DNA of 64,000 nucleotides from Flammula alnicola (lineage: Eukaryota > Basidiomycota > Agaricomycetes > Agaricales > Strophariaceae), in contig JADNRV010000100.1 in assembly GCA_015499995.1 (NCBI GenBank), positions 124,001 to 188,000 of the forward strand, given 5' to 3'. Under the pieces are notes generated by a model. It did no database searches. It had not been told where the DNA came from and saw nothing but the letters and a program-made list of their open reading frames with translations. The position numbers and the translations under genes were made by a program. Shown here one piece after another: positions 9,190 to 11,919 of the stretch (within the stretch, counting starts at the first letter, position 1; each line of letters opens with the position of its first letter).

Positions 9190-9400
9190 GTTGGGACATC
9201 TCGCTTGTGGCCAAATCGTGTCCACCGTCCACCGTCTGTTACTACGCTGATTTATCTGATTTATCGTTCGCTTATTGTTCGCTTTTAGCCAGTATACCCG
9301 TCCTTATATACCCGTCCTTGAATACCTGCCCGCCGTGGCTGGCAATGCCGCCCCAATGCCGCTATCGTTCGCTTATTGTTCGCTTTTAGCCAGTATACCT

Positions 9401-9990
9401 AGTCTTGTTCAATTTGACGGCCTTTTGGTGGGTGGGTCGATTCGGCCTTCTCGGACACATTTTGAACATCATGTGAGCTGAGATACGCAATCGGCGAACG
9501 TCACGTGTAATCCTCGCCCGACGCGTTCTTTCAATGTTTCGTTGATGTTGTCTGGTTTTTGAGGTTAAGAAAGTGATTTAGAAATGTGGGCACCATCCAA
9601 CCAGCATCGGAAATGCCAGCACGCACAGTTGCCATCTTTTCTGAAATTGTGCGAGTAGTCTTTTGAGTTGACACTGGGGTTGCCGATGGGACATTGGCAT
9701 TGTGAGAGGTCCACAGGTCTGCATAGCACTTTTTTGACATCCAGGGATGATGATATTCTATTTTCAAGGTTACTACACTAATACATAGAGTTCTTGCTTT
9801 TCTGTTGGCGGAACCAACGGGCAATGACATGAATTTAATGAAACAAGTCCTACCAGTGCCTCAGTAGAGCGCGAAAAGATTAGATTAGATGATTGATCTA
9901 TGGTCACGTGATGTTAAAAATTGTGTTGATTTTTGGCCGAGAAGGCCGAATCGACCCACCCACCAAAAGGCCTTCAAATTGAAACAGACC
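9401..9990. mobile_element. Non-autonomous element with ~90-bp inverted ends
   Basis: The sequence from 9401 (TTCAATTTGACGGCCTTTTG and onward through the GGTGGGTGGGTCGATTCGG block) recurs inverted, ending at about 9990. The inverted similarity weakens after about 90 bp, near the paired CAYGTG sites at 9471 and 9905. The interior has no recognised gene. It is bracketed by a duplicated H2A-derived block of about 72 bp (9290-9362 and 10042-10114). Clear short target duplications were not found, so the superfamily is unassigned. Confidence 0.6.
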
Positions 9991-10214
9991 TTATATATAG
10001 ATCGACTGTCATCTATTATTTGGTCTGTCGTGAGAGACTACAGTATACCCGTCCTTATATACCCGTCCTTGAATACCTGCCCGCCGTGGCTGGCAATGCC
10101 GCCCCAATGCCGCCCGTGATAACAAGCGCATAACAAGCGCCCGTGATAACTCGCCGTGATAACAAGGAGGAGGACAAGGAGGTAGGTAATGTATTGTGTA
10201 TTGTCCCTCGTCAT

Positions 10215-10380
10215 CCGTGATAACAAGAAGCAACATAGATTCTCGAACTCTCGGACTCATACTCTCCTTGAATACCACCGGTTGCTGGCAATGCCGTCCG
10301 TGATAACAAGAAGCAACATAGATTCTCGAACTCTCGGACTCATACTCTCCTTGAATACCACCGGTTGCTGGCAATGCCGT
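10215..10380. repeat. Perfect 83-bp tandem duplication within the H2A-derived field
   Basis: Units at 10215-10297 and 10298-10380 appear identical. Each starts ccgtgataacaagaagcaac and ends ttgctggcaatgccgt. A third unit starts at 10381 and breaks down after about 15 bp. The perfect match implies a very recent duplication. Confidence 0.85.
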
Positions 10381-10534
10381 CCGTGATAACAAGAAGTGAT
10401 TCTCGAGTGATTCTCGAGTGATTCTCGAGCTCTCCTTGAATATCGCCGATCGCTGGCAATGCCGCCCGTGATAACAAGAAGCAATGTCAGATAACAAGTA
10501 GGTAAGTCACGTATCAAGTAGGTAAGTCGTGTAT

Positions 10535-11030
10535 TAAACATATTGTCCCTCGTCATCCGTGATAACAAGAAGCAATGTAGATTCTCGTGAGCTCTCCTTG
10601 AAGATTGCTAGCAATGCCGCCCGTGATAACGAGAAGCAATGAGGTAAGTAACATATTAACATATTGTCCCTCGTCATCTGTGATAACAAGAAGCAACGTA
10701 GATTCTCGCAAGCTCTCCTTGAAGCTCGCTAACTAGCAATGCTGCCCGTGATAACAAGAAGCAATGAGGCAAGTAAGATATTAATGTATTGTGTCCCTTG
10801 TTATCCATGATAACAAGAAGCAACGTAGATTCTCACTCTCCTTGAAGATCGCTAGCTAGTAATGCCGCCCGTGATAACAAGAAGCAATGAGGTAAGTATT
10901 AACGTATTGTCCCTCGTCATCTGTGATAACAAGAAGCAATGTAGATTCTCGATGCCGCCCATGATAACAAGAACAAGGAGCAACATATTGTCCCTCGTCA
11001 CCCGTGATAATAAGAAGCAACATATTGTCA
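10535..11030. repeat. Four or more ~124-bp satellite-like units of H2A origin
   Basis: Each unit runs in the same order. It has cattgtccctcgtcatc-like, gtgataacaagaagcaa, agattctcg, ctctccttgaag, gctagcaatgccgcc, again gtgataacaagaagcaa, and then gaggtaagta. These correspond to H2A pieces RIVPRH, RDNKKQ, EIL, AGNAARDNKKQ, then a splice-donor-like gtaagt. Units start near 10541, 10664, 10790 and 10905. Confidence 0.75.
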
Positions 11031-11919
11031 TCCAAGTCCCAATCTCGCTCGACCAAGGCTGGTCTTCAGTTCCCTGTCGGTCCGTGTCCACCGTCTGTTG
11101 AAGAAGGGCAACTACGCTCAATGTGTGTTTTATTTTCACCAGTATACCTCGCTGCCGTCCTCAAGAATCTTAGCAACGAGGCAATGCCGCCCATGATAAC
11201 AAGAAGCAACTCGACCAGTCTCGGTCGACAGCTCCAGTCGGCCGTATCTGCCTTGTCTTACTTAGTTTATAGTTTACCTCGCTGCCGTCCTCGAATATCT
11301 CGCTTCCGAGATTCTCCAACTCACTACTGGTAATGCCGCTCGTGATAATAAGAAGCAGCATATCGTGCATCATCATCTGGAGGCGTCTGGAGGCAATGCC
11401 GATCTCCTGTTCCCTGTTGGTCATGTCCAACGTCTCTTGAAGAAGGTGTGTCGTTTGGCATCGTCAACTCATTTTGAACTCATTTTGAATTTATCTTTCT
11501 CTAGTTTACCTCACTGCCGTCCTCGAATACCTTGCTGCCAAGATTCTTCAACTCGCTGGTAATGCTGCTTGTGCGTTTAGGTTCATTTAGGCTAGTTGGC
11601 TAGTTACTGATAAAAATAGTTGCTAATAAAACTCATGCTCACTGGTAATGCCGCTTGTGATAACATATTGTCTCACATATTGTCTCTTGTGGTTTGGTTC
11701 ATTTAGGCTACAGTTACTAATAAAATTCATGCTTGGGCTCCAGATTTTCCGTGTATTATGCAGCCTGGATTGTAGACATTGTAATTATAAAGCAAGATAA
11801 GAAGCAAGATAAGATAAAGGGGGCCTTCAATCGGTCATCATTGACTCTTACCTGAGTTGCTTATGTAACATAGCCAGCCAATTTTATTCTCAATTCTCAA
11901 TTCTCGACTCTGATCCACT

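What the first reader, a model, noticed from the sequence alone, without database searches (positions are those of the whole stretch)
9190..11700. A satellite-like repeat field built from pieces of a histone H2A gene
The repeating units encode short H2A stretches: AGNAARDNKKQ about a dozen times, RIVPRH, EILEL and VYLAAVLEYL. At 11037-11575 there are three longer broken H2A copies, one still showing an intron-like break. The units are shuffled and tandemly amplified (83 bp and ~124 bp periods), and one pair is perfect, so amplification is recent. Tandem DNA derived from the 3' half of a core histone gene is unusual. It could arise from replication slippage after repeated H2A insertions, or act as a source of antisense or small RNA against H2A. 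The second idea is speculation.
Basis: partly seen in the sequence, partly recalled or inferred. Interest (0 to 1): 0.78.

Follow-up and report, generated by a model that had tools for sequence, protein, structure and literature searches.

The report
Scrambled histone gene inside jumping DNA
In a mushroom genome, broken pieces of a histone H2A gene have been multiplied into a fast-changing repeat block that rides inside a mobile DNA element, which shows how a jumping element can pick up a host gene and turn it into unstable repeat DNA.

Summary
Window 9216-11663 is largely made of sense-strand pieces of an intron-bearing histone H2A gene, tandemly duplicated. A copying model scores the field at 450 nats, against -51.5 for six of six shuffles.

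The setting changes the reading. The field is the left arm of an 8-13 kb mobile element (window 8885-22247) found at four sites. Its ends are ACTTAT (right end in the window ACTTTT). One copy interrupts another repeat whose uninterrupted form has a single ACTTAT. The element encodes a tyrosine recombinase and a GEN1/Yen1-like nuclease. It resembles a Crypton.

The field is hypervariable. Two near-identical copies differ there by 6 substitutions and 8 indels of at least 10 bp. The right part read differs by 13 substitutions and one 404-base insertion (p 0.013). Two lineages amplified different H2A segments, so I read it as an unstable passenger. The small-RNA idea is untested. Recombinase and nuclease relatives share contigs in three other mushroom species, which may be the better lead.

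The parts
8885..22247 (.). Mobile element copy A. Bounded by ACTTAT (8885-8890) on the left and ACTTTT (22242-22247) on the right; imperfect inverted arms TTATGCCGAATGATTTACCG (left) and TTATTTCGATGGATTTACCG (right, reverse strand)
   Evidence: four copies share the ends and have different flanks; copy A' interrupts another repeat
8891..9215 (.). left arm without detectable H2A
   Evidence: background state; shared with A' and, for its first 75-80 bases, weakly with B and B'
9216..9399 (+). H2A-derived field, first part (exon 1, intron 1 end and exon 2 pieces)
9400..10040 (.). 641-bp MITE-like insertion, 9-bp target-site duplication CAGTATACC (9391-9399 and 10041-10049); five further copies at 96-99% elsewhere in the genome
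10041..11663 (+). H2A-derived field, main part: 83-bp and about 121-bp tandem units and longer broken H2A copies (11029-11568)
11664..11848 (.). tail downstream of the H2A pieces; parts of 11699-11831 are shared with copies B/B' and with pseudogene locus C
11849..11905 (.). 57-bp dispersed repeat flanked by GACTCT, absent from copies A' and B' at this site
11920..15899 (.). about 4-kb transposon with terminal inverted repeat TAAGGACTGCCATGGAT and 8-bp duplication GATCCACT, absent from copies A', B and B'
15900..18890 (-). tyrosine recombinase gene region (NCBI model P0002); compared with copy A' it carries an insertion at about 16430-17076
19100..21071 (-). GEN1/Yen1-like XPG-family nuclease gene region (NCBI model P0051); limits approximate

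Best explanation
The field is a captured, decayed histone H2A gene that forms the non-coding left arm of a tyrosine-recombinase mobile element of Flammula alnicola.

Shown: the sequence is H2A-derived and carries intron pieces, so it was taken up as DNA, not as cDNA. It lies inside a unit with fixed ends at four sites. In the copies B and B', that arm has gained and lost tandem duplications faster than the rest of the element.

Inferred: H2A DNA was joined to the element at least once before the A and B lineages split. Replication slippage or unequal exchange then multiplied different H2A segments in each lineage. The recombinase excises and inserts the element at ACTTAT-like sites, probably through a circle and a Holliday junction. 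The H2A block itself is a passenger without a sequence-specific job.
For: H2A origin: (field 450 nats against -51.5 in 6 of 6 shuffles). Segments of B' that cover intron 1 match C512 at 87-97%.

Mobility: four copies with four different left and right flanks, all starting at ACTTAT. A' splits another repeat, whose uninterrupted form in the window (23481-23545) has one ACTTAT. Ten further places carry a similar left end; 6 of those 10 were read, and all 6 have ACTTAT at the boundary and, by eye, different upstream bases.

Enzymes: recombinase residues R252 (invariant) and H382, R386, Y425 (90% or more) in 17 of the 50 relatives found. The first 21 Foldseek hits are all tyrosine recombinases, 5 of them at E <= 0.001, on a low-confidence model. 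XPG_I and XPG_N; best solved match 'nuclease-like protein' 5cnq/5co8.

Instability: B against B' 6 substitutions and 8 indels >=10 bp in 1985 aligned bases of left arm, field and tail, against 13 substitutions and one 404-base insertion in 3677 bases of the right part read (p 0.013). 4 of the 8 indels are full exact tandem duplications. Exact tandem duplications number 5.2-8.5 per kb in the four left parts, 0.2-0.25 in two right arms, 0.53 at pseudogene locus C, 0 in 10 kb around C512.

No motif kept: lineage A amplified gene positions 280-319 (10-17 fold), lineage B 230-259 (12-16 fold).
Against: The A/A' contrast is weaker. The field has 54 substitutions and 7 indels >=10 bp; the chosen right-arm stretches have 43 and 0 (p 0.04), but if the two large insertions of the right part (about 650 bp in A, about 2.1 kb in A') are counted the difference is not significant (p 0.29).

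Microhomology at the junctions is not in excess (mean 0.85 against 0.71, p 0.17). Of copy A's left arm, field and tail, 793 of 2323 bases are unexplained by any of three H2A references. The donor is unclear: part of the field is closer to C512 and part to locus C. DNA beside the small relative at C143 is also rich in short tandem duplications (5 in 1584 bases), so instability is not unique to the H2A field. No transcription, excision or circle was observed. The window copy's right repeat is ACTTTT, not ACTTAT.
Confidence: 0.78

Rival explanations
1. The field is a functional source of antisense or small RNA against H2A. The recombinase gene points into the field, so read-through RNA would be antisense to H2A and could trim H2A expression or help the element escape chromatin control.
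For: The H2A pieces of all four fields are in sense apart from one 12-base piece each in B and B', while the window's recombinase frames are on the other strand. Exact 21-mers of the C512 gene start at 30 positions in A and 49 in B'; 0 of 200 random window stretches had one.
Against: Such matches are expected from any young capture. No RNA data. The two lineages amplified different H2A parts, and apart from those 12-base pieces there are no inverted H2A arms to make a hairpin.
Confidence: 0.07
2. The repeats are subterminal binding sites selected for the element's own recombinase, with H2A sequence recruited by chance.
For: The array starts about 330 bases from the element's left end, and one segment is repeated many times in copy A.
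Against: The B lineage amplified another segment. The 0.9-kb relative at C143 has both ends and no H2A by the copying model. The ends already carry short inverted arms.
Confidence: 0.05
3. The field is a chromosomal H2A pseudogene array that decayed in place; the element around it is incidental.
For: Such a locus exists: C334/C31, with collinear flanks and, in C334, three broken H2A copies.
Against: Fields A, A', B and B' lie inside units with shared ends and different flanks. In the 10 kb and 9 kb read around locus C no element protein is found; it has 1 exact tandem duplication in 1900 bases, 0 of its 8 allele indels of 5 bp or more are full tandem duplications, and it shares no exact 15-mer with C512, unlike the fields.
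Confidence: 0.05

Closest known systems
Crypton transposons (tyrosine-recombinase DNA transposons; Kojima and Jurka 2011, PMC3212892, passages read)
   Same: A tyrosine recombinase gene, no long terminal repeats, short direct repeats (4-6 bp) at both ends, presumed circle intermediate; known from fungi including a basidiomycete
   Different: No GCR1_C domain was detected by Pfam in the five recombinases scanned. A GEN1-like nuclease and an H2A-derived arm are carried; neither is in the passages I read
Starship elements (DUF3435 captains)
   Same: The recombinase shows a weak DUF3435 match
   Different: All five below Pfam's cut-off; 8-13 kb, not giant; Starships are described from Pezizomycotina (abstract of PMC12134995 in a search listing)
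Host-gene capture by transposons (Pack-MULE, Helitron, CACTA, recalled and from search listings; Helitrons of Pleurotus, PMC4289320, passages read)
   Same: Host gene DNA carried and moved by an element
   Different: The carrier is a tyrosine-recombinase element; the captured gene is a core histone that became a tandem array. The Pleurotus paper reports captured genes of other origin but no Pleurotus gene fragments in its Helitrons
Satellite-like arrays inside non-autonomous Helentrons (Crassostrea gigas, PMC7492417, abstract read)
   Same: Tandem repeats housed in and spread by a mobile element
   Different: Different element class; those repeats are not described as histone-derived in the abstract

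Membership tests
Crypton | encodes a tyrosine recombinase | tested here: met
   R252, H382, R386, Y425 conserved in an alignment of 17 of 50 relatives; first 21 structure hits are tyrosine recombinases, Cre first at probability 1.00, but TM-scores are low (0.20-0.22 by query for the first five) and the model has mean pLDDT 56.5, pTM 0.38; some relatives are named 'Tyr recombinase domain' or 'Integrase'; sequence searches against solved structures gave no recombinase
Crypton | short (4-6 bp) direct repeats at the ends, no long inverted or terminal repeats | tested here: met
   ACTTAT at both ends in A', B, B'; ACTTAT and ACTTTT in A. Short imperfect inverted arms of about 20 bp are also present
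CryptonF | C-terminal GCR1_C domain | tested here: not met
   0 of 5 recombinases matched GCR1_C in Pfam at E 0.1; a distant version cannot be excluded
Starship | DUF3435 captain over the Pfam cut-off | tested here: not met
   Best 20.6 bits against a cut-off of 25.8
Satellite DNA | long, free-standing tandem arrays of one unit at many places | tested here: not met
   About 1.8 kb of mixed units inside four element copies; the genome search scored 40 of 67 candidates, so more copies are possible
GEN1/Yen1 Holliday-junction resolvase | XPG_N and XPG_I domains with acidic active-site motifs | tested here: met
   P0051 of the window's contig: XPG_I 59.9 bits, XPG_N 19.9 (below its cut-off of 22); P0052 both above cut-off. 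GEAEA- and SED-type motifs in most of ten aligned relatives. Best solved match 5cnq, which I recall to be Chaetomium GEN1. GEN1_C only weakly, in P0054 (17.3 bits, cut-off 26.7)
GEN1/Yen1 Holliday-junction resolvase | cleaves four-way junctions | not testable with these tools
   biochemistry needed

The most novel reading that the evidence does not exclude
The element belongs to an undescribed class of tyrosine-recombinase transposons of gilled mushrooms that carry their own Holliday-junction resolvase. A tyrosine recombinase makes a Holliday junction in mid-reaction, so the GEN1-like nuclease could finish the strand exchange or cut excised circles. In Flammula the same machinery, working on one arm, would be what turned a captured H2A gene into a hypermutable array.
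Probability: 0.35. Interest if true: 0.7.

Novelty: new variant of a known kind. Interest (0 to 1): 0.5.

Why it matters
It is a clear, recent case of a core histone gene picked up by a fungal tyrosine-recombinase element and turned into unstable repeat DNA while the element was still moving. The near-identical copies B and B' give a natural clock: indels can be counted against substitutions. The pairing of a tyrosine recombinase with a GEN1-like nuclease, on shared contigs in four mushroom species counting Flammula, gives a testable question about how such elements complete strand exchange.

Tried and rejected
Free-standing satellite: rejected, since the tandem field was found only inside the four element copies among the matches scored.

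RIP-like or methylation-driven hypermutation: not supported. CpG sites change more (24 transitions at 197 CpG positions against 24 at 425 other C/G positions in A), but the CpG content of the field is normal, observed/expected 1.0.

Microhomology-led joining: not in excess.

Periods kept in frame: not so; 23 of 63 periods, pooled over four related copies, are multiples of three.

Element remnant at pseudogene locus C: 0 tblastn hits at E 0.01 in the 10 kb and 9 kb read.

Tandem duplication as a property of the element family's left arm in general: not shown. The 0.9-kb relative has 2 in 906 bases, and its flank outside the element has 5 in 1584.

Structure prediction of the recombinase gave low confidence, so the fold match is support only.

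My first right-arm comparison took stretches between large insertions and so showed no indel; searches count the insertions, and the B/B' p rose from 0.002 to 0.013 and the A/A' p from 0.04 to 0.29.

Literature, nine searches: 'Crypton' + 'tyrosine recombinase' + 'Agaricomycetes' gave 0 papers and a six-term histone/minisatellite search gave 0. Searches on histone-derived repeats or capture, Cryptons in Basidiomycota or mushrooms, DUF3435/Starship and resolvase plus recombinase transposons listed no paper whose title or shown abstract describes this; most lists were cut at 15-20 papers. One search looked for the species. One further paper, on TET/JBP transposons of fungi (PMC12730594, passages of a term search), has no occurrence of tyrosine recombinase, Crypton or XPG. 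The library lacks most subscription journals.

Full report
1. What was checked. The window lies on contig C3 of a 74-Mb, 861-contig assembly. Protein search puts the window's recombinase on a 201,523-base contig of Flammula alnicola and two close relatives on a 513,028-base contig. These are the lengths of C3 and C46, so the host is this mushroom. Several loci occur as pairs, such as C334/C31, as expected if both nuclei of a dikaryon were assembled; that is inference.

2. The H2A field is real. I compared the field with the H2A gene on C512 of the same genome using a copying model that may jump between positions on either strand. The field scores 450 nats and 1219 of 2550 bases are assigned to H2A. 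Six of six shuffles score -51.5 with no base assigned; of five other window stretches four are the same and one has 24 bases at -48.8. All H2A segments in copies A and A' are in sense; B and B' have one 12-base reverse piece each. The pieces include exon 1, the end of intron 1 and exon 2. Intron pieces mean that DNA, not spliced RNA, was the source. Of 48 direct jumps in A and B', 39 go backward, the mark of tandem duplication.

3. Insertions inside and beside it. A 641-bp MITE-like element (9400-10040) with a 9-bp target duplication splits the field; five copies at 96-99% exist elsewhere in the genome, and the C46 copy lacks it. A 57-bp repeat (11849-11905) and a 4-kb element with an 8-bp duplication (11920-15899) follow; both are absent from copy A'.

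4. The field belongs to a mobile element. Searching outward showed that similarity to three other places begins at the same point: window 8885, C46 about 343,572 (reverse), C46 about 413,806 and C778 about 332,818. The DNA upstream differs in all four. Similarity ends together as well, near window 22245. The left boundary reads ACTTAT in all four; the right boundary reads ACTTAT in three and ACTTTT in the window. Copy A' interrupts a repeat whose uninterrupted form in the window (23481-23545) has ...GGGAACTTATTCGG... with one ACTTAT. This is an empty-site argument for one of four copies; for the other three no empty site was sought. The ends carry imperfect inverted arms. A left-end pattern search gave 14 matches with up to 2 mismatches (reversed-pattern control: 1): the four copies and ten others. 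I read six of the ten; all six have ACTTAT at the boundary and, by eye, different upstream bases. One of the ten was read further: it is a 0.9-kb element with a matching right end and no H2A by the copying model. My count of right ends did not complete.

5. What the element encodes. A gene on the minus strand encodes a protein with the tyrosine-recombinase residues (R252, H382, R386, Y425 of P0001, in an alignment of 17 of 50 relatives). Pfam shows only a sub-threshold DUF3435 match (20.6 bits against 25.8). A predicted structure of low confidence (pLDDT 56.5, pTM 0.38) has tyrosine recombinases as its first 21 Foldseek matches, Cre first, 5 of them at E <= 0.001. Sequence comparison with solved structures found no recombinase. 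A second minus-strand gene encodes an XPG-family nuclease. The closest solved relative of its Pholiota homologue P0052 is 5cnq/5co8, 'nuclease-like protein', E 3e-38; I recall this entry to be fungal GEN1. The window's recombinase gene region carries an insertion at about 16430-17076 that copy A' lacks.

6. The two genes travel together. Of 11 nuclease relatives named by NCBI (of 32 hits), five lie on contigs whose species and length equal those of recombinase relatives: Flammula 201,523 and 130,429, Gymnopilus junonius 332,198, Phlegmacium glaucopus 304,928, Cyclocybe aegerita 523,654. For the other six no recombinase on the same contig is in the list of 50. Adjacency was seen only in the Flammula element; elsewhere I know only the contig.

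7. The field changes fast. Copies B and B' differ in left arm, field and tail by 6 substitutions in 1985 aligned bases but 8 indels of at least 10 bp (13 to 107 bp). The right part read (3677 bases) differs by 13 substitutions and one insertion of 404 bases, which looks like a transposon insertion; with it counted, Fisher p is 0.013, and on the stretch without it p is 0.002. Four of the eight B/B' indels are full exact tandem duplications. A against A' points the same way but is weaker: 54 substitutions and 7 such indels in the field (MITE left out), 43 and 0 in the two right stretches first taken (p 0.04), but p 0.29 if two large insertions of the right part are counted. In A/A' 7 of 13 indels of 5 bp or more are full tandem duplications; at locus C 0 of 8. 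Exact tandem duplications of 8-130 bp number 12, 14, 19 and 18 in the four left parts of 2.1-2.3 kb (5.2-8.5 per kb) against 1 in 5018 and 1 in 3939 bases of right arm, 1 in 1900 at locus C, 0 in 4 kb of its flank, 0 in 10 kb at C512, and 0 and 3 in two 20-kb window stretches. Twenty of twenty shuffled fields have none. The rate is not special to H2A sequence, which is stable at C512 and locus C. It is also not unique to this element, because DNA beside the C143 element has 5 in 1584 bases.

8. No motif is kept. Lineage A multiplied H2A gene positions 280-319 (10-17 fold in A and A'); lineage B multiplied 230-259 (12-16 fold in B and B'). This argues against a selected binding motif or one coding unit. 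Periods are not kept in frame.

9. Where the H2A came from. Of three single references, C512 explains A best (489 nats against 376 for locus C and 317 for C73), and B' likewise (494 against 292 and 275). Yet parts of A (field bases 1745-1859 and 1950-2048, MITE left out) fit locus C at 93% and 89%, where C512 gave 83-84%, and the tail beyond the H2A pieces is shared with locus C. Locus C shares no exact 15-mer with C512, while the fields share runs of 28 to 34. So the fields mix younger C512-like and older C-like material. One capture followed by conversion, or two captures, both fit.

10. Mechanism. Shown: mobile unit, H2A arm, tandem instability in B/B'. Inferred: the recombinase exchanges strands at the 6-bp ACTTAT core between inverted arms, as proposed for Cryptons through a circle (PMC3212892, passages read); H2A DNA joined the left arm by an unknown route; slippage or unequal exchange then multiplied it. 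Whether the GEN1-like nuclease takes part is open.

11. Verdict. The H2A field looks like a passenger. The small-RNA idea remains possible but has no evidence. The recombinase-plus-resolvase element deserves the next look. On rechecking I lowered confidence from 0.80 to 0.78 because the right-part insertions weaken the A/A' contrast.

Noticed in passing
window 3392-8462: Caspase-domain (Peptidase_C14) gene region duplicated as an inverted pair: window 6221-8462 matches C3:127392-129640 (window 3392-5640) on the other strand at 92%.
   Followed up: no
window 11849-11905: 57-bp repeat flanked by GACTCT; similar stretches are listed at 28 other places in the genome, with 40 of 67 candidates scored.
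   Followed up: partly
window 11920-15899: About 4-kb transposon with inverted ends TAAGGACTGCCATGGAT and an 8-bp duplication GATCCACT; class not determined.
   Followed up: partly
window 23103-23527: Dispersed repeat with 20 or more listed copies; copy A' of the H2A element is inserted in one of them.
   Followed up: partly
window 34172-36541 and 48436-50796: Two similar gene regions; the first matches fungal protein kinase PF17667.
   Followed up: no
L042 (C512 about 46.6-47.3 kb): The C512 H2A gene, next to an H2B-like match, appears one base short in an A run of exon 3 compared with C73; a real frame slip or an assembly error.
   Followed up: no
L075 917-2501 (C143): DNA beside a 0.9-kb relative of the element is rich in exact 8-11 bp tandem duplications (5 in 1584 bases), which hints at a wider mutational habit of some non-coding DNA here.
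   Followed up: partly
window 54186-58586: Frames that look from memory like acetate kinase and phosphoketolase, side by side (no family search was run).
   Followed up: no
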